From Gammaproteobacteria bacterium (GTDB lineage Bacteria; Pseudomonadota; Gammaproteobacteria; Pseudomonadales; Pseudohongiellaceae): a stretch of 64,000 bases of DNA. The notes under the pieces are model-generated. The model made no database searches. It saw only the letters and a program-made list of their open reading frames with translations, and was not told the origin of the DNA. Below are positions 20,686-34,662 of this stretch, one piece after another; position 1 is the first letter of the stretch, and every line of letters starts with the position of its first letter. The translations under genes were made by a program, and so were the position numbers. The DNA lies in NCBI GenBank assembly GCA_030682575.1, contig JAUXNX010000023.1, positions 62,001-126,000 of the forward strand, written 5' to 3'.

Positions 20686-23600
20686 TCAGGAGATTGTCAG
20701 AGTAGCGCCACCGATCATGGTGGTCAGTGTTGTGATGCCGCTCAACTGGATCAGTTGGTCGTCCGCATTGCCTGGTGCGGTACCGGCGTAGTACACGTAG
20801 GTGTTGTCGCCATCGACGAACATCGCGACTGAATCAGCCAGGTCGAGTTCGAGATCCGCCTGGATCGCAATGATCTTCTTGGCCAGAGTGTCATCTGCTG
20901 GATCGAAAGTGATCAGACCGCCTCCAGAAGTGTTGACGTTGACGCCCGCTACCAGCAGTGTTGCATCGGCCGTCAGCAATACTGCGGTTCCACCGAAACT
21001 CAGGATATCAGCGCCCGCAGTATTGAAGTCGGTGATGATGTCCATCGCCGTACCAATCAATGAGCCATCGACACCAAACGCGAAGGTGTCCACGCCACCT
21101 CCGCCGGTCATGGTGTCCGAACCAGTGCCGCCGGTGATCAGATCCGTTGACAGGCCAGCGACAATGATGTCGTCCCCGGCACCGGTGCTGATGGTGCCGT
21201 CCTTGCCGGCTGCACCAATCGTAGTGACCTTGTCATTGCCGCCCGCTGTCGTGATGGTCTGATCGCCCGAGGCAGCTTCAGCCACGATGGTGACATTTTC
21301 GTCGCTGGTGCTCTGAATCGTCTGGCTGCCTGCGCCGAGGATCGTGGCGTTCACTGTGACGAGATTACCGCCGAGTGTCGTACCAATCACTTGATCGCCA
21401 CCGCCGTTGATGATGGCATCAACGGTGGTGAGGCCAACACCGTTGATCGTTTGCGCGCCAGCACTGAGACCCGTCGCTTCGACTGTGGCAGCGCCTGTGC
21501 CTGTGACAATAGTGTGCGCACCGGCACCAATGGTCGTTGTCTTGATCTGCGCTGTGCCGGTAAAACCGGTCATGGTCACATCAATCGCGCCGAGCAGAGT
21601 CTCTACCTCAAGATCAACTCCATTGTCAGCAAACGCTGCCTCGAAGTTCGGCCCGGAAGTAAAGGACTGAGCACCGTTACCCAGTGATTGCAACACCACC
21701 TTTTCGAAGTTCGTTGTGGAAGTCCACAGAAGATCGGAGGGAGTGCTGGCCATGGCGCCAGTAGTGATTTTCAGAGTATCTGTGCCATCCAATCCATCGA
21801 GTATGTCGCCGATATTGAAAGTGTTGAGACCGCCATCACCATGTGTTCCAGAGAAAACATCATTGCTGATGCTGCCGCTCAAGTTGTCCACAGCTGTAGT
21901 CAAATCAATGAAGGCGGCGACGTAGTCGACTGCAAGCGTGGGATTGTCGAGAGCACTCACAGTTGCATTGCCATTCACGTCAATCAGAGTCACCGTCGCA
22001 ACGCCACCTGCTGCTACAGCCGCTTGCAGTGCAGCGTTGTCAGCGGGGCTAAGATCAAACTCGACAGTGGTATCGGCTATCAGAATCGTGGTATCGGTCG
22101 CGATGATGGTGTCGCCAATCTTCAGCACGGCACTGCCACCCGTGGCCTGTCCGGCTACAATCGTCGCGACAGCCGTAAGGTTGGTGTTGGTGTTGTTCAG
22201 TGAGTTGGAGACAACTGTTCCGCCAACAGGCGTCAATACAACGTCTGTGGGGGCCGACGGTGCTGTGTACGCCACTGTCAGAGTCGGATTGGCGACTGAG
22301 CTGACAGATGTGTTTCCTGCAGCATCAATCAGGGTAACCGTGACGATGCCGCCAGCCGCTACCGCCGTCTGCAATGCTGAAGTGGTTGCTGTGCCAAGGC
22401 TGAAGGTCACGCTGGTATCCCCGGCCAGGATTGTGGCGTCAGTCGCAATGGTGGTAGCGCCGACTTTCAGCACGGCGGTGCCACCTGTAGCTTCAGCGGC
22501 TGCAATCGTAGCGGTCGCAGTCACATTGGTATTGGTGGTGTTCAATGTATTCGCCACCACTGTGCCACCGATCGGAGTGACTGTGACCGCAGTGGGCGCC
22601 GCAGGAGCAGTGTTGTCTACAGTAAACACCGCATTGGTCGGTGTGGCAGAGATGGTTCTGCTGGAGCCATCACGTGCGCCATCAATAGTGACTGTCGCCG
22701 CAGCAAAGTCTCCCGCCGGGACATCCAGGGTGTAGGAGTAATGAGTGCTGTCGATCTTGGTCATCGCTGTAGCAACCGACAGGATGCCATTGTTGATGAG
22801 GATCGTCGGTGTATTGTCGCTGACAGGTTTGTTGAAGGTGGCGATGATGGTCAGCGTGTCGGCATCCTTGACCGATGCCGTTGTTGCTGAAGTGATGCCA
22901 CCATTGGTTGAGTAGGACAGTGTGGCGGTGGGGGCTGCCCGTGCCGCTGATGCTGCCGCTGATGCAGCGGCTGCCGCAGCCTCATCAGCGGCAATCTGAC
23001 TTGCCGTCGGTGGAGTCGCCACGCCTGGAGCAATTTCACCCACAGTGACGTTGTAGTTCGCCGTCGTCAGGGCCGAGCCAGTGAAGCCAGTGACGGCGCT
23101 GTCGAAGTTTCCACTTGTAGCCCCGGCGATGAGCGCATTGGTAGCGCTGCCCTGTGCAACGTCTGCGGCCTGGGCGAGTTGGGTAATATTCGTTGCAGCA
23201 TCGGCGGCAGTGTTGCTGCCTGCCGTTATCTGCGCGATCTGAGCGACCTGTGCAGGTGTCAGGGTAGAGCCAGTCGCAGTCATTGACTCCTGAATGATTC
23301 TGGCCAATGTGGTGACATTAGCCAGATCGATAGTGCCGGTAGCGCTTGCAGCAGCAATGGTGACCGCTTGCGCCAGAGCAAGGGTAACAGCGGCCGCCGC
23401 GCTCTGCAGCGTTGCGCCCGGGGTGGCATTGTCAATCACGGAAGCGGTATGAGTGATGATGTTGCTGATCTGCTGCGATGTCGCCTGTACGGAAAGGGCG
23501 ACCGCTTTTTCTGTGGGGGTCGCCGTGCTGCTGGCGAGGACTGCCAACGGGTTGTAAGACAACAGATTGATATTGGTTGGCAGACCCAGTGCGCCCTTGA

Positions 23601-24438
23601 TCGCGGTGGTGGCTTCGTTCACGGTCTGACCACTGTTGACCATCGATTCGACCAACGTGGTCAGTGGATTGACCACTGTCGAGCCAGCGGTGGCGCTGAG
23701 CAATCCCTGGAAGGGATTGCCTGTCATCAGATCGGTGCCCCCGTAGACAATGATCTTGCCTGCAGCAACAATGTTGGGCATTAAAAGAGTGCCATTCGCA
23801 GTGGTGGTGCTTGACCACTCGCCTGTGTTGAACATGCCGTCACGGTTGGCATCTGCAAACACGGTGGCTCCGGAGAGATAGCCGCTCACTGTTCCTGTGA
23901 TGCCTGTGAAGGAAAGGTTCGTAGACAGCGCATTGAATCCGGTAGTCGCATTGGCAAAGCTGGCGTTGGTGTTGTCAATGTTCTGCAACAGATTTGTCAC
24001 GGCAGTGGTCATGCCCAGTCCGGTGAAGTGAGAGCTATTGCCGTCTGCACTCAATTTTGCAAGGAAATTCGAGGCAGCTTCTGCGCGGTTGTCCAGAGTA
24101 TCGCCGATCACCCCTTTCAGTGTGCTCAGGAAATTCAGCAGCTTGGAGCCGGAATCAATACCAGCTGCAATGAACTCTCCCAGGTAGCCTTGGGCCTGTG
24201 TGGTGGTAAGAGTGACACCGAAACCATTTCTGGCGATGTCTTGAATGGTCATCACGACCCCTTGCGCGGCCACGAGTTGGCCCAGGTAGTTGTCCACCGT
24301 CGCTTCGATCGATATGAAACTGCTGCCCGGGATTGTCGAAGCATTGTATCCGGCCATTTCATTGGCGTTTGCCATTGAACCAGTGCCAAGGATGTAAAGT
24401 TTCTGTATGCGCAGATCTTGCTCGATTTGTGTAGCCAT
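20686..24438 (-). CDS. Large Ig-like/RTX-like secreted or surface protein
   Basis: This is a 1250-residue acidic, Thr/Ala/Gly-rich protein without a Sec signal. The N-terminus (about residues 45-115; VDNYLGQLVAAQG, TTQAQGYLGEFIAAGID) resembles the DUF4214-like head found in S-layer and type I secreted proteins. The middle has a Ca-cadherin/Ig-like unit with FNKPVSDNTP, then two near-identical Ig-like repeats of about 105 residues (GGTVVANTLN / GGTVVSNSLN). A beta-helix-like segment follows. The C-terminus has an RTX-like region (STGAGDDIIVAG, ITGGTGSDTMTGGGGVDTF) and a hydrophobic tail, consistent with type I secretion. No secretion genes are in the window. It could be an S-layer protein, adhesin or matrix protein. 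Confidence 0.85.
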   Translation of the reverse strand: MATQIEQDLRIQKLYILGTGSMANANEMAGYNASTIPGSSFISIEATVDNYLGQLVAAQGVVMTIQDIARNGFGVTLTTTQAQGYLGEFIAAGIDSGSKLLNFLSTLKGVIGDTLDNRAEAASNFLAKLSADGNSSHFTGLGMTTAVTNLLQNIDNTNASFANATTGFNALSTNLSFTGITGTVSGYLSGATVFADANRDGMFNTGEWSSTTTANGTLLMPNIVAAGKIIVYGGTDLMTGNPFQGLLSATAGSTVVNPLTTLVESMVNSGQTVNEATTAIKGALGLPTNINLLSYNPLAVLASSTATPTEKAVALSVQATSQQISNIITHTASVIDNATPGATLQSAAAAVTLALAQAVTIAAASATGTIDLANVTTLARIIQESMTATGSTLTPAQVAQIAQITAGSNTAADAATNITQLAQAADVAQGSATNALIAGATSGNFDSAVTGFTGSALTTANYNVTVGEIAPGVATPPTASQIAADEAAAAAASAAASAARAAPTATLSYSTNGGITSATTASVKDADTLTIIATFNKPVSDNTPTILINNGILSVATAMTKIDSTHYSYTLDVPAGDFAAATVTIDGARDGSSRTISATPTNAVFTVDNTAPAAPTAVTVTPIGGTVVANTLNTTNTNVTATATIAAAEATGGTAVLKVGATTIATDATILAGDTSVTFSLGTATTSALQTAVAAGGIVTVTLIDAAGNTSVSSVANPTLTVAYTAPSAPTDVVLTPVGGTVVSNSLNNTNTNLTAVATIVAGQATGGSAVLKIGDTIIATDTTILIADTTVEFDLSPADNAALQAAVAAGGVATVTLIDVNGNATVSALDNPTLAVDYVAAFIDLTTAVDNLSGSISNDVFSGTHGDGGLNTFNIGDILDGLDGTDTLKITTGAMASTPSDLLWTSTTNFEKVVLQSLGNGAQSFTSGPNFEAAFADNGVDLEVETLLGAIDVTMTGFTGTAQIKTTTIGAGAHTIVTGTGAATVEATGLSAGAQTINGVGLTTVDAIINGGGDQVIGTTLGGNLVTVNATILGAGSQTIQSTSDENVTIVAEAASGDQTITTAGGNDKVTTIGAAGKDGTISTGAGDDIIVAGLSTDLITGGTGSDTMTGGGGVDTFAFGVDGSLIGTAMDIITDFNTAGADILSFGGTAVLLTADATLLVAGVNVNTSGGGLITFDPADDTLAKKIIAIQADLELDLADSVAMFVDGDNTYVYYAGTAPGNADDQLIQLSGITTLTTMIGGATLTIS

Positions 24439-24613: not shown

Positions 24614-25552
24614 TCAGATCGCGGCGGGATCTATCATGTGCAACGTGGCGCGATAACTGTCGATGTATTCCCCGCCAAGCATGACTGCTCGCTGTGCGTG
24701 AACGAGCGCCTGCTCACGCTGGTCCAGCGCAAATAGAATATTGGCGAGATTGTTGTGAGCTGGCGCATACTCGGGGTGGTGGGCAATGACCTTGCTGTAT
24801 TGCTCTGCAGCCGCCGCCGGAGATTTGTTGGTGTACAGCAGATTTCCGTACCCCATCAGCAGGTTGCGATCCGTTGGCCATGTTTCCAGACCGCTGGCAT
24901 AGCCCTGACTGATTACTGTTGAGGGATTGGTTATCTCCATTGCTGCCAGCGCACTGAAATATGCTGTGGGTTCAGCAACGGCGGGCATTACACCGGGTTC
25001 CAGTGCCAGCACTCCCCAATAATCAGCGCGTGCCCACGTGCGCTCGAAAGTGGCAATGGACACTTCGTAATTCTCGACTAGGCCGGAGTTGAGAATCAAC
25101 TTGCGGCGTGACAGATCAAATCCTTTGACTACTGCGAAATGCCATTTTGGATACCACTGCAAGCTCAGGTTTTGCAGCACCAATACGGGATGGCCAGCTG
25201 CGACTTCACTCAGCAGAGTTTCGAGATTGGGAGTGATTTTGTATGCGAGGCGGCCATGGCTGCGAGTGGTCGCGACCATCTCAATCTGAAAGGAGCCTTC
25301 GCGTTCTGGAACATAGACAAGAGGTACGAGTTGTTCGGGAGTGACTTCAATACCAGTTGTCACCAGCATCGTCGCCAGTGCAGCGGGGCCGCATTGATAC
25401 AATTCCTGAGCAAAAAAAGGCACCTGACTCAATAAGACAGGTGCAAAAAGAGATTCGGGGGTCTGCTGCCGCAAGGCAGCAGACTGTGGAGCGGAAGCGC
25501 AGGCGTTCAACATGAGTGTGACAGCAAGACCGATCAGCAGTTTTCTACACAT
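24614..25552 (-). CDS. PA2778-family cysteine peptidase lipoprotein with TPR tail
   Basis: This 312-residue protein starts at ATG 25552 (MCRKLLIGLAV) with a lipobox LMLNAC. The N-terminal half is a C39-like papain-fold peptidase domain, with the catalytic Cys in YQCGPAALATML and His in KWHFAVVKGF. The C-terminal half has TPR-like helices (YGNLLYTNKSPAAAAEQY, HHPEYAPAHNNLANILFAL). This is the PA2778 family. Its usual partner, a PA2779-family protein, is directly upstream in the same direction, so they form an operon. The peptidase substrate is unknown. An in-frame TTG at 25597 is less likely because it removes the N-terminal position of the signal peptide. Confidence 0.9.
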   Translation of the reverse strand: MCRKLLIGLAVTLMLNACASAPQSAALRQQTPESLFAPVLLSQVPFFAQELYQCGPAALATMLVTTGIEVTPEQLVPLVYVPEREGSFQIEMVATTRSHGRLAYKITPNLETLLSEVAAGHPVLVLQNLSLQWYPKWHFAVVKGFDLSRRKLILNSGLVENYEVSIATFERTWARADYWGVLALEPGVMPAVAEPTAYFSALAAMEITNPSTVISQGYASGLETWPTDRNLLMGYGNLLYTNKSPAAAAEQYSKVIAHHPEYAPAHNNLANILFALDQREQALVHAQRAVMLGGEYIDSYRATLHMIDPAAI

Positions 25553-25601
25553 TACTGAGAGCCTGGGTCGCCGGGAGTCTCGATCAAACACCTGCAAAAC
25601 A

Positions 25602-25988
25602 TCAGATCCTTGGGAACACGTCAGTCGCGCCGAGCAGATCCAGCAGTACGAAGATCAGGATGACGCCAACCACTATGCCCACGACGTTGCCACCGGCAGG
25701 AAGCTGCGCCATCTGGTTCTGTATCTGCAGCAGTTCGCTTTCGGTCAGACTGTTGATTCGGGCATCGATATCGGCAGGGTTCACACCGTATGCAAGCATC
25801 GCACTGCGCACATCATCACGCGCCATCAAGGAGCGCACATCATCACGCTGCATCTGCAGCTCTGCCGCCATTGCAAGGTCTGAAGTGCTGATGATGTCTG
25901 CCATGGCGGGAGCCTGGATACCGGCGGTTGCCAGCAGGACTGTCATTGACAGGATTCCAGGTGCTTTCATCATTTTTGAAATTTTCAT
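25602..25988 (-). CDS. PA2779-family protein
   Basis: This 128-residue protein has a signal peptide (MKISKMMKAPGIL... to APAMA|DII). A helical central part contains a duplicated RDDVRS segment and the VNPADIDARINSLTESEL motif. A C-terminal membrane helix (VVGIVVGVILIFVLLDLLG) follows. This pattern matches PA2779, the standard partner of PA2778-type peptidases. ATG 25988 follows AGAGGC. The gene lies 49 bp upstream of the peptidase start. It may be the peptidase substrate or membrane anchor, which is inference from conserved pairing only. Confidence 0.88.
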   Translation of the reverse strand: MKISKMMKAPGILSMTVLLATAGIQAPAMADIISTSDLAMAAELQMQRDDVRSLMARDDVRSAMLAYGVNPADIDARINSLTESELLQIQNQMAQLPAGGNVVGIVVGVILIFVLLDLLGATDVFPRI

Positions 25989-26216
25989 ACGTAAGCCTCT
26001 TTGGGTGTGAGTAACAGCATGCAGTGATTGTCTGGAGCGGTTCACTTGCTGTTACACAAGTTAGCAGATTGGGAGGCTACTTCCGTTCGGTAGGCCACAG
26101 AGGGTGCGTGATGCAATTTCAGCAGCGAGCTTGCTCGTTCCCACAGCAGGCCGGTGCGGCGGGGAGTGAACGTATTGAAGAGAAGAACGGAACAGAGTTC
26201 TTGCTGGAGGGGGGAA

Positions 26217-26256: not shown

Positions 26257-27204
26257 CTACAGTTTTGCGTGCAGCTCCTTGATCTGTGCGGCGATCCAGC
26301 GCGTGACTCCTTCATGGGGAATCAGGCCCTTCTCGTCGGCCACATAGTGGAGGCCTTCCAACACATCGGCGTAGGGGCCGAAACTGTGTACGCGATAGGG
26401 AATCACAATGGCGGTGCCACTGGTGGCAACTGAGTTGGCAACGAACGCACGCACTTCCTGCTCGGCAGCCGCGCGTTTTTCTTCCCAGTCTTCACGCAAG
26501 GTAGCAACCTTCACGCTGCGGAATTGATGAGCAGCACGAATCACTTCCGCGCGCGCATCAATGTAGACAAGCCAGCGTTCGTTCTCGGCATCGTCACCCG
26601 GGCCGTGCGCGAGGATCAGCACATCTTCCTGGGCAGCGTTCCGACTCAGTGCCGAGGCACGGGCCAACAGTACCTCGCCCATCTCCTGTGCTTCTGCCAG
26701 TCCCGGCTTGCTCAATGCGAAACTGGCATCGGTATCGATCTGCCAGAATTCCATGCTGTGATCCATCACCGCCGTGGCAGAGCCTTTGTCGGCAACTGTG
26801 GGCATGGTGTGACCAGCATGGGAGTCTGCCGCTGTCATATGCTCCGCGTGACCTTCTGCATCGCGTGCCGGTGCACCTTCACGCATGCCCAGAATCTGCT
26901 CGGTGCGCTCATACCAGCTCTCGCCGCTGATGAACAGACGCACCACTGCAATCCTGCTGGCGCCACGATCTTCAAGGCGCGCTACAGCTTCCTGCAGAGA
27001 GACAGCATCGGCCATGCCGAAGGCCACTTCCAGAGTGTGATCCCCGGCCAGTGGTGCGACGGTGTCGAGCACGCCCTGATTCCATTCCGGCGAACCGCCG
27101 TGGGCCATCACCAGCACACCAAATTCGTTGGTTTCCTGCGCGCTTGTGGACATTGACCATGCGAGACTCAATGCCATCAATACAGGTGTAAACAGGTTCT
27201 TCAT
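26257..27204 (-). CDS. Periplasmic CbiX-like chelatase-fold protein with His-rich insert
   Basis: This 315-residue protein has a Sec signal (MKNLFTPVLM... to MSTSAQ). It looks like two CbiX/sirohydrochlorin-chelatase-type halves. Each has a strand ending in the metal-site HG: VLVMAHGGS (His35) and VLILAHGPG (His200). Between them is a flexible His/Met-rich loop (about 115-150) with His at 119, 122, 129, 132 and 149. Ordinary CbiX is cytosolic and about 125 or 260 residues. Here the protein is exported and follows hemP and a heme-type TonB receptor. It may insert, remove or carry metal or porphyrin in the periplasm; no such function is proven. ATG 27204 follows GGAAGA. Confidence 0.8.
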   Translation of the reverse strand: MKNLFTPVLMALSLAWSMSTSAQETNEFGVLVMAHGGSPEWNQGVLDTVAPLAGDHTLEVAFGMADAVSLQEAVARLEDRGASRIAVVRLFISGESWYERTEQILGMREGAPARDAEGHAEHMTAADSHAGHTMPTVADKGSATAVMDHSMEFWQIDTDASFALSKPGLAEAQEMGEVLLARASALSRNAAQEDVLILAHGPGDDAENERWLVYIDARAEVIRAAHQFRSVKVATLREDWEEKRAAAEQEVRAFVANSVATSGTAIVIPYRVHSFGPYADVLEGLHYVADEKGLIPHEGVTRWIAAQIKELHAKL

Positions 27205-27286: not shown

Positions 27287-29518
27287 TCAGAATTCATAAT
27301 TCACTCCCACCCGGAAATTTGTACCAGGCGCCTGCGCCTTCGCAATGTTGTTGGCATCGGTCGCGGCAAGACCCTTGATGCTGCCCCAGCGTGCATACTT
27401 CTCGTCGAACAGGTTGAAGATGCCCACTCGCACAGAGGCGCCTTCGGTCAGTTGATAGCTACCGATCAGATCCACGAGGCTGTAGCTTTCTCCTGTGACG
27501 CGATCCGGAGCTGACACCCGGTCCTGCTCGTCCACCAGAGTCAGCAATGTCTCCACGCCCCAGCGTCCGCTGCTGTCGTCGTAGCGTGCACTGAACACAC
27601 CCGTGAGTGGATCGACAGAATTCAAGGGGCGATTGGCATTCTCGTCCTTGCCCCGCGACCACGCGATGGAAGTGCGCAGTTGCCAGTTGTCCGTGGCGCG
27701 CCACAGGCCAGTCGCTTCCGTGCCATAGATGCGCGCCTCACCGATATTGGTGTCCTGAAACAGGCTGATGCCGTTCACTGTGCCGATGGTCTGGCTCTCG
27801 ATGAAATTGTCATAGGCGTTGTCGTAAACAGCGAGACTCAGACTCGTGCGCGCAAAGTTCGCACGGATGCCCGCTTCGATCCCGCGACTGAACTCCGGCT
27901 CCAGATCCGGATTGGGTACTGTTGCGTAGCCATGTCCCAGATTGACGAACGCCTGATTGGATTCATCGAAGTTGGGCGGCCGGTAACCTTCAGCGTATTG
28001 CGCAAAAAAAGACGTCGTGTCGTTGAGATCGTAGATCACGCCAAGATTGAGAGAGACCTGCTCCTCTTCAACGTCCACGACGTCAAAACCACCGAAGTTG
28101 CTGATGTCACCGCCGCCATTGAGCAGCGCGTCCTTGTGCGGATTCATCTCGTAATGTTCGTAGCGCACGCCCGGAATCACGGTGAAACCGCTGGCACCCA
28201 GTGTGACCTCGTCCTGCCAGTACAGCCCCGCTCGTGTCGTCGTGGTGTCCGGGAAGGTCTTGTTCGGAAACACTTCCGGTGGTGCCATCGGATAGCTTGG
28301 AATATTGCAGCTCACCGCGCCTGTCGATATCTGTGTGTCGCAGCGGTGGCGTGGACGTTCTGTTTCGGTTCGATCAACTTTGAAACCGTAGATCATCGCG
28401 TGCTGTGCGCTGCCAGTGTCCAGTGTCTTCGAGAGCAGAATGCCCGCGTTGCTGGTTTCCTGATTGAATTCGAAATCGCTGAAACGCTCTGCAGGTGTGC
28501 CGCTGAAGGAGGCCGGGTTCGCTCGGTTGACGAAGGCGTAACTGGTCAGCAGTTGTTCGCTGTACTGTTCGGCGTCGGTGCGCTGCCAGTGCAACTGGGT
28601 TTCCATGGTGTCGGCAAAGGCCACATCCAGAGTCCAGGTGTGCGCGAGGCTGCTGCGCAGACGATTGGTCTCGTCGCTGCCTTCGGAGCGTTTCACGGAG
28701 GCGGTCAGCTCCGAGTCCATCCGGGTATCGATCAACTCGTCAGAGGAGTCAACAGTCAGCCGCAGTTGATGTGCTGCGTTCGGAGTCCACACGCCCTTGA
28801 CCATCCAGTTGTCAAACTTTCCGTCCTGGGGGTTCAATTTGCCCGGGCCATTGATCTCGCTTTCACCGAACTGTCGGCGCGTGTACTGCACCACCGAACC
28901 GAAGTTGCCCTGCTGGAAGACATAGCTCAAACCAGCCTTGTAGTGATCATTGACGCTGTTGGCGGAGCTGCGCAGCGAGAAAGCAGAGCTCTCACCTTCA
29001 TCAAGATAGTCCCGGGGGTCCTTGCTGCGCAGGATCACTGCGCCGCCCATCGCATCCGCACCGTAGAGTACAGAGGCTGGGCCACGGATGATTTCCACCG
29101 CGCGCAGATCATCCACTTCAAATGCATCCTTGCCGTAGGAAGCGGGTCCGGCTGCGTAGATGTCGCTGCTGCGGATGCCATCGATCACAGTCAACACGCG
29201 GTTGCCGCCAATGCCACGGATCACAAAGCCCTGATTGCCGCCACGACTGGCCGTGTCCATCGACAGGCCGGGCTGGAAGCGGGTGATGTCGTTCAGATCA
29301 TCGGCGAGTTGGCGCTCGATGTCCGCTGCACTGATGACGGACACAGTGCCTGCGATGTCCTCCAGAGAGCGTGGCAGCAAGGTTGCAGTGACGATGACTT
29401 CCTCGATGTTGCGCTCGGAATCAGCAGCATGGGTCGCATTTGCCAGTACACAGCAGACAATGCCGAGCACGAGGCGCTGAATGGGGAATGGTGCGGTGTG
29501 GGGTATGGCAGCTTGCAT
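27287..29518 (-). CDS. TonB-dependent heme/hemoglobin-type receptor
   Basis: This 743-residue outer-membrane receptor has a signal peptide (MQAAIPHTAPF... to ANATHA|ADSE). The TonB box region is EEVIVTATL. The plug domain (about residues 40-160) has FVIRGIGGNRVLTVIDGIR and VEIIRGPASVLYGADAMGGAV. The barrel ends with VGVNYEF and a terminal Phe. The sequence style matches the TonB-dependent hemoglobin/transferrin/lactoferrin receptor group. The start at 29518 has CAGGAGAG just upstream, and TTG 29536 is less likely. It follows hemP by 111 bp and precedes the chelatase-fold protein, so it should import heme or a metal complex under Fur control. Confidence 0.92.
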   Translation of the reverse strand: MQAAIPHTAPFPIQRLVLGIVCCVLANATHAADSERNIEEVIVTATLLPRSLEDIAGTVSVISAADIERQLADDLNDITRFQPGLSMDTASRGGNQGFVIRGIGGNRVLTVIDGIRSSDIYAAGPASYGKDAFEVDDLRAVEIIRGPASVLYGADAMGGAVILRSKDPRDYLDEGESSAFSLRSSANSVNDHYKAGLSYVFQQGNFGSVVQYTRRQFGESEINGPGKLNPQDGKFDNWMVKGVWTPNAAHQLRLTVDSSDELIDTRMDSELTASVKRSEGSDETNRLRSSLAHTWTLDVAFADTMETQLHWQRTDAEQYSEQLLTSYAFVNRANPASFSGTPAERFSDFEFNQETSNAGILLSKTLDTGSAQHAMIYGFKVDRTETERPRHRCDTQISTGAVSCNIPSYPMAPPEVFPNKTFPDTTTTRAGLYWQDEVTLGASGFTVIPGVRYEHYEMNPHKDALLNGGGDISNFGGFDVVDVEEEQVSLNLGVIYDLNDTTSFFAQYAEGYRPPNFDESNQAFVNLGHGYATVPNPDLEPEFSRGIEAGIRANFARTSLSLAVYDNAYDNFIESQTIGTVNGISLFQDTNIGEARIYGTEATGLWRATDNWQLRTSIAWSRGKDENANRPLNSVDPLTGVFSARYDDSSGRWGVETLLTLVDEQDRVSAPDRVTGESYSLVDLIGSYQLTEGASVRVGIFNLFDEKYARWGSIKGLAATDANNIAKAQAPGTNFRVGVNYEF

Positions 29519-29551
29519 TGGGCTCTCCTGAGACAAGGGAGAGTCTGGCTT

Positions 29552-29629: not shown

Positions 29630-29794
29630 TTACTTGGTCAATATCAGTTTCTTGTTTGCGGTAATCCGCAGGGTATAGCGTTCTCCGTTATGGATGATCG
29701 TCAGTTCGCCTTTGGAGCCCAGCAGGGTTGAACTGCTGACTTCGTCGGGGCGGGCTGGACCGGTCAACCCTGGGCCTCGTGTAGCATCGGTCAT
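29630..29794 (-). CDS. hemP: Hemin uptake protein HemP
   Basis: This 54-residue protein ends LTIIHNGERYTLRITANKKLILTK-like, carrying the signature LLGSKGELTI plus YTLRITANKKLILTK of HemP. Members of this family act as small regulators or activators of heme-uptake gene expression. ATG 29794 was chosen because GAAGGA lies 8 bases upstream; an open extension to 29872 looks non-coding. It is first in the operon with the TonB receptor and chelatase-fold protein, behind a promoter overlapped by a Fur-like box. Confidence 0.86.
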   Translation of the reverse strand: MTDATRGPGLTGPARPDEVSSSTLLGSKGELTIIHNGERYTLRITANKKLILTK

Positions 29795-29884
29795 GGCAGA
29801 TACGTCCTTCAGTGTCGCTTTGGCATTGGAATCAGTGCCTGCGAGAGCGACTGCGGCAAACTGCCGCAGCACAATCTGATGGGT

Positions 29885-29932
29885 ATGATAAAGGGGCTTT
29901 TCTTAAAACGCAAATGCGAAGCATTCTTATTT
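29885..29932 (-). promoter_or_regulatory. hemP promoter with overlapping Fur box
   Basis: On the minus strand there is a -35 TTGCGT (29908-29913), a 17-bp spacer and a -10 TATCAT (29885-29890), about 90 bp before hemP. The plus-strand 20-mer at 29913-29932 begins AATGCGAAGCATT and matches the 19-bp-type Fur consensus at about 15 of 20 positions. It abuts the -35, where iron-loaded Fur would block RNA polymerase. Confidence 0.7.
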
Positions 29933-32520: not shown

Positions 32521-32545
32521 GATCAAGGAACCTGACCCCTTGATC
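32521..32545. repeat. GATCAAGG...CCTTGATC inverted repeat, copy 2
   Basis: GATCAAGG (32521-32528) pairs with CCTTGATC (32538-32545) across 9 nt. It shares all but one base of a 22-mer with the copy at 29977-29997. This copy overlaps the 3' end of the 32523-33539 gene and supplies its last codons and stop. Confidence 0.5.
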
Positions 32546-33539
32546 GGGCATCCCACTCCACCCGACGCGCCCCGGCCAGGATGCCTTCGAGCCCGTAGTT
32601 GCCCTCGTGGCAGGAGTATTCGTAGATCAGCTCGCCCGGTACCTTGCGCATCAGAGTGAGCTCTTCAGTGAAGGGCTGGGTGTACACCTGTGGATCTGTC
32701 ACGGTGACGGAGTAGAAAATCTCGTTCTCGCCCACGATCTCGAAGCGCTCGGTCAACTCCAGTTGATCGGTGGAGATCAGGCGAAAGTGAGAAATCTCCG
32801 GTCGGAAATTCTTGCTGTGCACGATGAGTGTGTCTCCCTCCCAGTACCCCACGGCATCCCCCATCCAGGTCTTCACGTCGCCCGGATGATGTTCCTTGTT
32901 GAGGCGGATGATGCGCGCATCGTGCACCATCTCGCCCATGATCATGACGTAGTCCTTGTTCTGCACGATCTGGAAATTGTTGTTGTAGGGAGTCACAGTC
33001 ATCGGCGGAATACCGCGTGACAAGCAGCGATCGCCCGCAGTGCGTCCTTCGGGGCCATCGGAGGCATCCAGACCTCGGGCGCTGTATTGGCCATAAATAT
33101 CCTGCCTGCGACCATTTTCACGAAAGGGAAAGCGGCCATTGGGTGGGTCAACGATCATCGAGGTGCGGTATTCTCCTTTTACCCTGAGCACATTGACGAA
33201 GACATCGCTGAAATTGATATCGGCTTCCTGGCCGATGGCGCCGCCCAGGGGAGGGGGTTCGCGATCTCCTTCCAGGGGCTCGGCCTTCTGGCGTTCGAAT
33301 TCGCGCGCGGCTTCTTCCAGAGCCTGTACCTCGGCTTCGGTGTAGGCGCGTTGCTCACCCAGCTCCACCGGACGTTCAATAGGGGTTTGCGTGGTGTTGT
33401 GCCAGAAGCCCTGCAGGTTCGGGTGGCCATGCTCGGTGCGGGGAACTTGCCACTGCTCGCCGGTTTCGGCGCCGTTGGCAGCAGCCGTCAGTGCGAATAT
33501 GGATAACGCAATGGAGAGACTCAACGCGTTGTGCATCAT
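32523..33539 (-). CDS. Secreted protein of unknown function, tandem paralogue B
   Basis: This 338-residue protein has a signal peptide (MMHNALSLSIALSIFALTAA). The mature part begins with PRTEHGHPNLQGFW and contains VDPPNGRFPFRENGR, NKDYVMIMGEMVHDARIIRL and FACHEGNYGLEG-type (YSCHEGNYGLEG) motifs. It is closely related to the gene immediately upstream. I do not recognise a biochemical function; related proteins are common in secreted repertoires of soil and marine proteobacteria. Its start overlaps the upstream stop by 4 bp (ATGA) with GGAG 8 bases before. Its last residues differ from the paralogue because they are encoded by a repeat element. Confidence 0.85.
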   Translation of the reverse strand: MMHNALSLSIALSIFALTAAANGAETGEQWQVPRTEHGHPNLQGFWHNTTQTPIERPVELGEQRAYTEAEVQALEEAAREFERQKAEPLEGDREPPPLGGAIGQEADINFSDVFVNVLRVKGEYRTSMIVDPPNGRFPFRENGRRQDIYGQYSARGLDASDGPEGRTAGDRCLSRGIPPMTVTPYNNNFQIVQNKDYVMIMGEMVHDARIIRLNKEHHPGDVKTWMGDAVGYWEGDTLIVHSKNFRPEISHFRLISTDQLELTERFEIVGENEIFYSVTVTDPQVYTQPFTEELTLMRKVPGELIYEYSCHEGNYGLEGILAGARRVEWDARSRGQVP

Positions 33540-34552
33540 TGTGCTTGCTCCAGAAGGCGCGCGTCGTGCTCCTGTTGGCGGGCACCGCGCAGAATGATTT
33601 CCATGGAATAGTTGCCTTCGTGGCAGGCGAATTCGTACATCAGTTCGTCCGGCGGCAACCGGTACAGGTTCATCTCCACAGTGTAAGGCTGGGTGTAGAT
33701 ATTGGGGTCGGTGACTGTATAGGTGTAAAAGATCCGGTCGTCGCTGACGATGGTGAAGCGTTCGCTCACTTCCAGCAACTCTGAGGACACCACGCGAAAG
33801 TTGGAAATTTCCGGCCGGAAGTTCTTCGTGTGCACCACGAGGGTGTCGCTTTCCCAATGGCCGATGGAGTCGCCGAACCAGTATTTCATGTGGTCGGGCT
33901 GGTGTTCGCTGTTCAGGCGGATGATGCGGGCGTCATGCACCATTTCCCCCATGATCATCACGTAGTCCTTGTTCTGCACGATCTGCGCGTTGGAGTTGTA
34001 GGGCAGCAATACCATCGGGGGCATGGTGCCGATGGCGGAGAGGCAGCGCTCACCGGCAGGCCGAATCTCCGGGCCATCGAATTCGTTGAAGCCCTGGGCA
34101 CGCCACTGACCGTAGATGTCTTTCTGGCGTCCGCCTTCAACGAAGGGAAAACGTCCGTTGGGTGGATCGACTACCAGCGATGTGCGGTACTCGCCATTGA
34201 TGCGGGTGACACCCATGCCGACATCCGAGTAGTCCACTTCGGCTTCGTTGCCGATGCGCTCTCCGACCGGTGGTGCCTCACGATCCGGATCGATAACGGT
34301 GGGCCTGCTGGCCTGGGTGTCGATCAGAGACTCTTCAAGTTCGTGAGCTTCCTCTTCGGTGTAGGTGCGCTGTTCGCCAAGAGCTTCAGGACGCTCCATC
34401 GGTGTCTGTGTGCGGTTGCCCCACAGACCCTGCAGATCCGGATGGCCGTGTTCGGTGCGAGGGGTAGTCCACCCTGTTTCCGCGCCCTGAACATGCAGAG
34501 GGGTCAGCAGCAGAGCCAGGCTCAGAGATATGAAGAGTGTCAGTGATTTCAT
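33536..34552 (-). CDS. Secreted protein of unknown function, tandem paralogue A
   Basis: This 338-residue secreted protein has a signal peptide (MKSLTLFISLSLALLLTPLH). It shares with paralogue B the segments PRTEHGHPDLQG, VDPPNGRFPF, NKDYVMIMGEMVHDARIIRL, WESDTLVVHTKNFRPE and ACHEGNYSME. The same length and strong conservation indicate a recent tandem duplication. The conserved His/Asp/Glu and Cys residues could bind metal or a ligand, but no activity is established. It is translated first, then coupled to paralogue B, and the DUF5916 barrel follows. Confidence 0.85.
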   Translation of the reverse strand: MKSLTLFISLSLALLLTPLHVQGAETGWTTPRTEHGHPDLQGLWGNRTQTPMERPEALGEQRTYTEEEAHELEESLIDTQASRPTVIDPDREAPPVGERIGNEAEVDYSDVGMGVTRINGEYRTSLVVDPPNGRFPFVEGGRQKDIYGQWRAQGFNEFDGPEIRPAGERCLSAIGTMPPMVLLPYNSNAQIVQNKDYVMIMGEMVHDARIIRLNSEHQPDHMKYWFGDSIGHWESDTLVVHTKNFRPEISNFRVVSSELLEVSERFTIVSDDRIFYTYTVTDPNIYTQPYTVEMNLYRLPPDELMYEFACHEGNYSMEIILRGARQQEHDARLLEQAQ

Positions 34553-34662
34553 TGCAATAATGGCCAGACGGATTGATGTCGGGACAGGAAAGTAGACAGA
34601 TTCAGCCGAATTGTCCAACTCCAACGATCCGTTTAATCATTTATTCGCAGTTTGTTTGATCC

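What the first reader, a model, noticed from the sequence alone, without database searches (positions are those of the whole stretch)
26257..27204. Periplasmic chelatase-fold protein with His-rich loop in a heme-uptake operon
Two HG metal-site strands (His35 and His200) frame a His-rich insert. CbiX enzymes are cytosolic, but this one has a signal peptide and follows hemP and a heme receptor. It may handle heme iron, cobalt or a tetrapyrrole in the periplasm, an untested activity.
Basis: partly seen in the sequence, partly recalled or inferred. Interest (0 to 1): 0.6.

Follow-up and report, generated by a model that had tools for sequence, protein, structure and literature searches.

The report
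Exported chelatase-fold protein with heme receptor
Next to the gene for an outer-membrane heme receptor sits an exported protein with the fold of the enzymes that put metals into heme-like rings, but with that metal site rebuilt, so it probably catches incoming heme outside the inner membrane; the general idea is known from other bacteria, while this version seems undescribed.

Summary
In detail: window 26257-27204 (-) encodes a 315-aa protein with a signal peptide, HG motifs at His35 and His200, a His-rich segment between them, and heme-receptor and hemP genes upstream. An AlphaFold2 model (pLDDT 84) matches class II tetrapyrrole chelatases (SirB Z 18.9; periplasmic CbiKP 17.0; P. gingivalis FetB 15.8). 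It is not a normal CbiX: the metal-ligand Glu (SirB Glu43) is Met64 and the second ligand His (His76) is Trp97; His35 remains, and His200 stands, by a weak alignment, at SirB Arg134. His35, Met64 and His200 are kept in all of 62 aligned rows that reach them; the His-rich loop is not (24 of 52 close rows have no His). In the taxonomic family, 37 of 40 genomes with the gene have it directly behind a TonB receptor, and where hemP was also found (27) it always lies upstream on the same strand. Fur-like boxes precede most of these. Best reading: an exported heme-binding protein made from a class II chelatase, perhaps using Met64/His200, like the Met/His pair reported for the de-chelatase HmuS. Iron removal is possible but unshown. 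IhtB/FetB and CbiKP are precedents: a new variant of a known kind.

The parts
26257..27204 (-). Exported chelatase-fold protein (315 aa): signal peptide 1-22, N-lobe 27-105, variable His-rich loop about 113-150, C-lobe about 172-315; invariant His35, Met64, His200, Asp239, Arg244
26755..26868 (-). His-rich loop, residues 113-150; lineage-specific, same place as the His-rich tail of CfbA
27287..29536 (-). TonB-dependent heme/hemoglobin-type receptor, 749 aa
   Evidence: PF00593/PF07715; TIGR01786 379.9 bits > 323.75 and TIGR01785 354.1 > 316.85
29630..29872 (-). hemP (hemin uptake protein), upstream gene of the set; the true start may lie inside this ORF
   Evidence: PF10636 56.1 bits > 25
29910..29928 (.). 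Weak Fur-like palindrome upstream of hemP (12 of 19 matches; 5 of 30 shuffles reach this)

Best explanation
The protein is an exported, periplasmic member of the class II chelatase fold whose metal-insertion site has been rebuilt into a heme (metallotetrapyrrole) site. Heme enters through the neighbouring TonB-dependent receptor and is caught in the cleft between the two lobes, with axial ligands drawn from the invariant Met64 (N-lobe), His200 (C-lobe) and His35; the protein then passes on the heme, or iron taken from it, to an inner-membrane importer. Shown here by computation: fold, gene linkage, export signals, conservation, loss of the normal ligand set. Inferred: that the ligand is heme, which residues hold it, and what happens next. 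The operon is probably Fur-controlled. The His-rich loop is an accessory feature of some lineages.
For: Fold: AF2 pLDDT 84.3, pTM 0.79; SirB Z 18.9, CbiKP 17.0, CbiX 16.7, FetB 15.8. Site: HMMER puts Met64 on CfbA Glu42 and Trp97 on CfbA His75; hhalign puts His35 on the HG His and Met64 on the Glu of small cytosolic CbiX proteins (E 1.3e-6); His35 52/52 + 10/10, Met64 52/52 + 10/10, His200 51/51 (one fragment lacks the position) + 10/10. These residues and 237 lie at or just after strand ends in the model, and HmuS holds a heme by Met-79 and His-254 (His-Gly-Arg), with Gln-299 nearby, between two lobes likened to class II chelatases. Linkage: 37 of 40 family genomes have the gene directly behind a TonB receptor on the same strand, gap -232 to +83 bp by longest ORF; hemP co-located in 27 of 27 genomes where both were found. 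Elsewhere: divergent heme receptor 144 bp away with a 17/19 Fur-like box between (L008); hemP, tonB, ExbB/TolQ-like, ExbD/TolR-like, FTR1/cytochrome c, heme receptor and four-lobed relative in one row in L036. Fur-like boxes: 27 of 36 upstream regions reach 13/19 against 4.6% of shuffles.
Against: No binding data. No coordinates were available, so cleft geometry is inferred from strand ends and fold, not measured. The His200/Arg134 equivalence rests on a weak alignment (E 0.0082, probability 4.9%). Outside the taxonomic family, L013, L014 and the five paralogues of G557 show no receptor among the large neighbours scanned; L007 and L009 are on short contigs and L012 is one-sided; L010 has a TonB receptor one gene downstream, but not of the heme type. 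13 of 40 family genomes with the gene had no hemP match, 8 of 35 with hemP had no match to the gene (some genomes are incomplete). Trp97 and Tyr278 are not kept in the divergent ten. HmuS has Met-Gly where this family has Gly/Ser-Met. The window's own Fur-like site is weak.
Confidence: 0.6

Rival explanations
1. Periplasmic heme de-chelatase (a stronger form of the best explanation): the cleft releases Fe2+ from heme, iron enters by an ion permease of the FTR1 type, and porphyrin stays outside or is exported.
For: L036 places an FTR1/cytochrome c iron permease beside heme receptor and chelatase-like gene; PepSY_TM genes lie beside the gene in L039 and near it in L015, where a ferritin-like protein is also annotated; the own genome has an FTR1 match over the cut-off (31.3 bits) and no HemS match; IhtB is thought to do this.
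Against: The own genome also has a PF01126 heme-oxygenase match over the cut-off (32.4 bits) and a FecCD permease with an ATPase resembling heme/B12 importers, below NCBIfam cut-offs, so cytosolic heme use is possible; no FeoB_C match. In HmuS the Met/His heme is the non-substrate site.
Confidence: 0.25
2. Active metal-insertion chelatase (Mn, Co, Ni or Fe into a porphyrin) working in the periplasm.
For: Class II fold; a review credits FetB with inserting manganese into PPIX.
Against: Two of three metal ligands are replaced (Met64, Trp97); neither lobe keeps both of the histidines that are essential in Paracoccus CbiX (His127/His187), by the alignments used here.
Confidence: 0.07
3. Carrier of a metal ion (Cu, Co, Ni or Zn) rather than of heme, using Met/His ligands and the His-rich loop.
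For: Met/His sites and His-rich loops suit metal ions (general knowledge); in L038 a four-lobed relative overlaps an SCO1/SenC gene; a protein with a heavy-metal-resistance domain (29.4 against 29.2 bits) is the next gene in L015, and an HMA-type P-type ATPase lies 4 kb from one G557 paralogue.
Against: The window's close relatives sit with hemP and heme-type receptors; 24 of 52 rows have no His in the loop.
Confidence: 0.13
4. Accessory or regulatory partner of the TonB receptor with no ligand of its own.
For: Very tight coupling to the receptor gene; many relatives look like lipoproteins.
Against: Invariant polar residues at the cleft positions of the fold point to a ligand site.
Confidence: 0.08

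Closest known systems
P. gingivalis IhtB/FetB (CbiK-like lipoprotein of the Iht system with TonB receptor IhtA; PDB 9b86 is named FetB; that IhtB and FetB are one protein is recalled)
   Same: Class II chelatase fold (Z 15.8), exported, part of a system with a TonB receptor, linked to heme
   Different: IhtB is described as CbiK-like, while the window protein matches only CbiX in Pfam, below cut-off; here hemP belongs to the gene set; the Iht system includes an ABC importer, none is among the six window genes scanned; ligand residues of FetB were not compared
D. vulgaris CbiKP (periplasmic cobaltochelatase; PDB 2xvx, 2xvz)
   Same: Periplasmic class II chelatase fold (Z 17.0); a paper title calls it a haem-binding protein (reference list seen)
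   Different: A paper title in the same list calls the D. vulgaris CbiKs functional cobaltochelatases; here the metal-ligand set is replaced
SirB / CbiX / CfbA (PF01903)
   Same: Fold, HG motif, place of the His-rich segment in CfbA
   Different: Export; Glu43 to Met64, His76 to Trp97, Arg134 to His200 (weak alignment); gene context of heme uptake, not of biosynthesis
HmuS (CobN-like heme de-chelatase of Bacteroidota)
   Same: Heme-uptake operon with TonB receptor; a heme between two chelatase-like lobes held by a Met and a His-Gly His
   Different: Large class I (CobN-like) protein; de-chelation happens at another site; Met-Gly instead of Gly-Met; no CobN match here

Membership tests
Class II chelatase enzymes CbiX/SirB (PF01903) | Two-lobed class II chelatase fold | tested here: met
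   SirB Z 18.9, rmsd 3.1, 227 aligned
Class II chelatase enzymes CbiX/SirB (PF01903) | Sequence score above Pfam's cut-off | tested here: not met
   19.4 against 22 bits; of seven relatives scanned three pass (L014 30.4, L015 27.4, L018 49.7) and three score below (L133, L026, L012); the seventh protein row there that matters, L035:9764-10501, is a neighbour, not a relative
Class II chelatase enzymes CbiX/SirB (PF01903) | Metal ligands His10, Glu43, His76 (SirB numbering) | tested here: not met
   His35, Met64, Trp97 at these places
Class II chelatase enzymes CbiX/SirB (PF01903) | Inserts a metal into sirohydrochlorin | not testable with these tools
   needs an enzyme assay
IhtB/FetB-type exported heme chelatase | Exported and encoded with a TonB receptor | tested here: met
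   (export by sequence signals only)
IhtB/FetB-type exported heme chelatase | CbiK-type sequence | tested here: not met
   Pfam scan to E 10 gave only PF01903
IhtB/FetB-type exported heme chelatase | Binds heme / exchanges porphyrin metal | not testable with these tools
   needs purified protein
HmuS/CobN de-chelatase | CobN-type protein | tested here: not met
   315 aa, no CobN match to E 10
HmuS/CobN de-chelatase | Met and His-Gly His facing each other across a two-lobe cleft | tested here: inconclusive
   Residues present and invariant; geometry not measured; HmuS is not among the rows shown, which excludes nothing
Class III heme substrate-binding proteins (HmuT/PhuT) | Periplasmic-binding-protein family sequence match | tested here: not met
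   No such Pfam match to E 10

The most novel reading that the evidence does not exclude
A class II chelatase fold has been turned into a periplasmic heme de-chelatase (or heme reductase/relay) with Met/His heme ligation across its cleft, the same ligand pair that HmuS uses in a class I chelatase; it would give many Gram-negative bacteria, including those with four-lobed versions beside FTR1 iron permeases, a way to harvest heme iron without taking heme into the cytosol.
Probability: 0.22. Interest if true: 0.78.

Novelty: new variant of a known kind. Interest (0 to 1): 0.55.

Why it matters
How Gram-negative bacteria without the well-known heme importers get iron from heme is not settled (my judgement). 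A conserved, exported, unannotated chelatase-like family placed directly behind heme receptors, with an invariant Met/His set in place of the metal-insertion ligands, is a concrete candidate and can be tested by simple spectroscopy. It would also warn against labels such as sirohydrochlorin chelatase for such proteins.

Tried and rejected
Considered and rejected: ordinary cytosolic CbiX (export signal, lost ligands, heme-uptake context). A search of the own genome with PF01903 found nothing at E 0.001, but it misses the window protein too, so it only excludes ordinary CbiX; a search with the protein itself found one copy. Chance ORF (61 other rows align at 24-82% identity). His-rich loop as the working part (no His in 24 of 52 rows). 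I hoped to show that the own genome lacks any cytosolic heme route; that failed, since a heme-oxygenase match and a FecCD permease are present. phmmer of the single sequence against PDB found nothing. The comparison of the family profile with SirB-like proteins was weak (E 0.0082, probability 4.9%), as was N-lobe against C-lobe (E 0.0018, probability 14.9%). The weaker PF01903 matches were read: they are plain CbiX-like or HemH-like proteins without an obvious signal peptide, except L055, whose matching frame I did not resolve. HmuS did not appear in the rows shown by the fold searches; this does not exclude similarity. No paper on this family showed in the listings; those cover open-licence PMC papers only. 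The FetB paper PMC13065792 is not held.

Counting notes: the 52 'core' rows hold four proteins twice with different starts (L002/L034, L003/L035, L005/L100, L011/L133), so 48 distinct proteins; L136 is a divergent second copy and L115 a fragment. L005, L006 and L011 are the same contigs as G588, G597 and G678 (same lengths). The 40 family genomes come from 137 searched; in two of them (L120, L127) the receptor is cut by the contig end. The Fisher test (p 3.6e-12) ignores phylogeny. The Fur scan covered 36 of 40 genomes; the L033 region lies before a more distant receptor, not before the gene set itself; 9 of 36 stayed under 13/19. The receptor search by similarity to the window receptor can miss other receptor types: it missed the one in L010, which Pfam found.

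Full report
Observation. Window 26257-27204 on the minus strand encodes 315 aa. His35 and His200 are each followed by Gly; five His lie in residues 113-150. Upstream on the same strand are a heme-type TonB receptor (27287-29536) and hemP (29630-29872), both above curated cut-offs. Downstream comes a PA2779/PA2778 pair that similarity search found again in only 1 of 40 other family loci (L100; the loci differ in length), so the flanks change while the gene set stays.

Fold. By sequence the link to CbiX is sub-threshold (19.4 against 22 bits). An AlphaFold2 model from 11 sequences (pLDDT 84.3, pTM 0.79; residues 16-23 and 120-148 under 50) matches SirB (Z 18.9), periplasmic CbiKP (17.0), Paracoccus CbiX (16.7), coproporphyrin ferrochelatase (16.0) and FetB (15.8).

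Site. HMMER's own alignment of the family profile to CfbA sets Met64 on Glu42 and Trp97 on His75 (ligands named in PMC11301274, passages read). hhalign sets His35 on the HG histidine and Met64 on the Glu of small cytosolic CbiX proteins (E 1.3e-6). His200 falls on SirB's Arg134 position by a weak alignment. In 52 close-relative rows plus 10 divergent ones, His35 is 52/52 + 10/10, Met64 52/52 + 10/10, His200 51/51 + 10/10 (one fragment lacks it), Asp239 and Arg244 51/51 + 10/10 each; Trp97 is 50/52 but not kept in the divergent ten; residue 237 is Arg in 50 of 51 close rows and Arg 4 / Gln 6 in the divergent ones. In the model these residues lie at or just after the ends of strands 27-34, 57-62, 193-200 and 230-236, the place that lines the cleft in this fold (established knowledge of class II chelatases). 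I read this as a remodelled, not a decayed, site.

Parallel with HmuS. PMC12583661 (sections 17, 18 and 22 read; other passages) reports a heme between head and neck lobes, likened to class II chelatases, with iron held by Met-79 and His-254 of a His-Gly-Arg motif and Gln-299 nearby. The family here has Gly/Ser-Met in the first lobe (HmuS: Met-Gly), His-Gly in the second, and Arg/Gln at 237. I infer, and have not shown, that heme is held the same way. In HmuS this is the non-substrate site, which argues for binding or reduction rather than de-chelation at such a site.

Gene context. In 137 genomes of the taxonomic family the gene was found in 40 and hemP in 35, both in 27. In 27 of 27 they share contig and strand with hemP upstream, at 21 bp (G110) or 2370-2694 bp (26 genomes). 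In 37 of 40 the gene lies directly behind a TonB receptor (gap -232 to +83 bp by longest ORF); exceptions are G110 (hemP directly before it), G655 (no receptor hit) and G673 (divergent receptor). A second, divergent copy in G674 (L136) has none. Of ten receptors scanned, eight pass TIGR01786's cut-off (seven family ones and L008); L010 and L037 do not. In one search the receptor of L036 passes, those of L039 and L015 do not. Outside the family: divergent heme receptor and Fur-like box in L008; hemP, tonB, ExbB/TolQ-like, ExbD/TolR-like, FTR1/cytochrome c, heme receptor, gene in L036 (the Exb-like hits are below their cut-offs); receptor-PepSY_TM-gene in L039; gene, then about 2.8 kb on receptor-PepSY_TM-ferritin-like in L015; gene-DUF6607-receptor in L010. 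Against: no receptor among the large neighbours scanned in L013, L014 and around G557's five paralogues (L013's 970-aa end ORF was not scanned); L007 and L009 are short contigs, L012 has almost no downstream sequence.

Regulation. Best match to a 19-base Fur consensus (typed from recall) in 36 upstream regions: mean 13.5 against 11.0 in dinucleotide shuffles; 27 of 36 reach 13, against 4.6% of shuffles. The window's own site is 12/19 (5 of 30 shuffles as good). Outside the family: L008 17, L036 15, L015 15, L039 13, L010 12 of 19; 0, 0, 0, 1 and 4% of base shuffles as good.

Own genome. No ordinary CbiX, no HemS, no FeoB_C at E 0.001; present are one strong FecCD permease with an ATPase resembling heme/B12 importers below NCBIfam cut-offs, a heme-oxygenase match and an FTR1 match, all three over their Pfam cut-offs. 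So both cytosolic and periplasmic iron release remain possible.

Known precedents. P. gingivalis Iht system: IhtB resembles CbiK and is thought to remove iron from heme (PMC10913741, passages); a review credits FetB with making MnPPIX (PMC13402209, passages). That IhtB and FetB are one protein is recalled. B. fragilis is reported to remove heme iron in the periplasm and import it by FeoAB (PMC6460266, passages). EfeUOB pairs an FTR1-like permease with an extracytoplasmic heme peroxidase (PMC3577903, search listing only). The window protein works in a similar place but belongs to a separate, CbiX-side branch with its own ligand set.

Verdict. New variant of a known kind; heme binding likely, iron removal open.

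Noticed in passing
L015, L018, L019, L020, L021: Four-lobed relatives (open frames of 543-681 aa): the first two-lobe unit lacks the HG histidines, the second keeps His35/Met64/His200.
   Followed up: partly
L041-L043 (G557): One genome carries five divergent paralogues, most with a signal-like N-terminus and several with His/Met-rich N-terminal segments; no TonB receptor among the large neighbours scanned.
   Followed up: partly
L038:1829-2407: An SCO1/SenC gene overlaps the end of a four-lobed relative, hinting at a metal-ion role in that lineage.
   Followed up: no
Family loci: receptor about window-receptor residue 535, chelatase loop 113-150: Receptors with His in the GHGY stretch go with His-rich chelatase loops (11 of 12 have 4 or more His) and the other 23 do not (0 with 3 or more); confounded by genus.
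   Followed up: partly
L016:11450-12829: The Manganitrophus GAC4 plasmid copy of the gene is split over several ORFs; the GAC2 copy (L015) is one ORF.
   Followed up: no
L005:9211-10587 and L006:8859-10331: A beta-lactamase-fold (PF00144) gene follows the chelatase-like gene in the two nearest relatives but not in the window.
   Followed up: no
window 24614-26045: PA2778-family C39 peptidase and PA2779-family small protein side by side; function unknown to me.
   Followed up: no
window 20686-24438: 1250-aa protein with long Ala/Thr-rich stretches; looks like a large secreted protein (by eye).
   Followed up: no
window 32523-34624: Two similar-looking ORFs in tandem (444 and 362 aa), apparently duplicated (by eye).
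   Followed up: no
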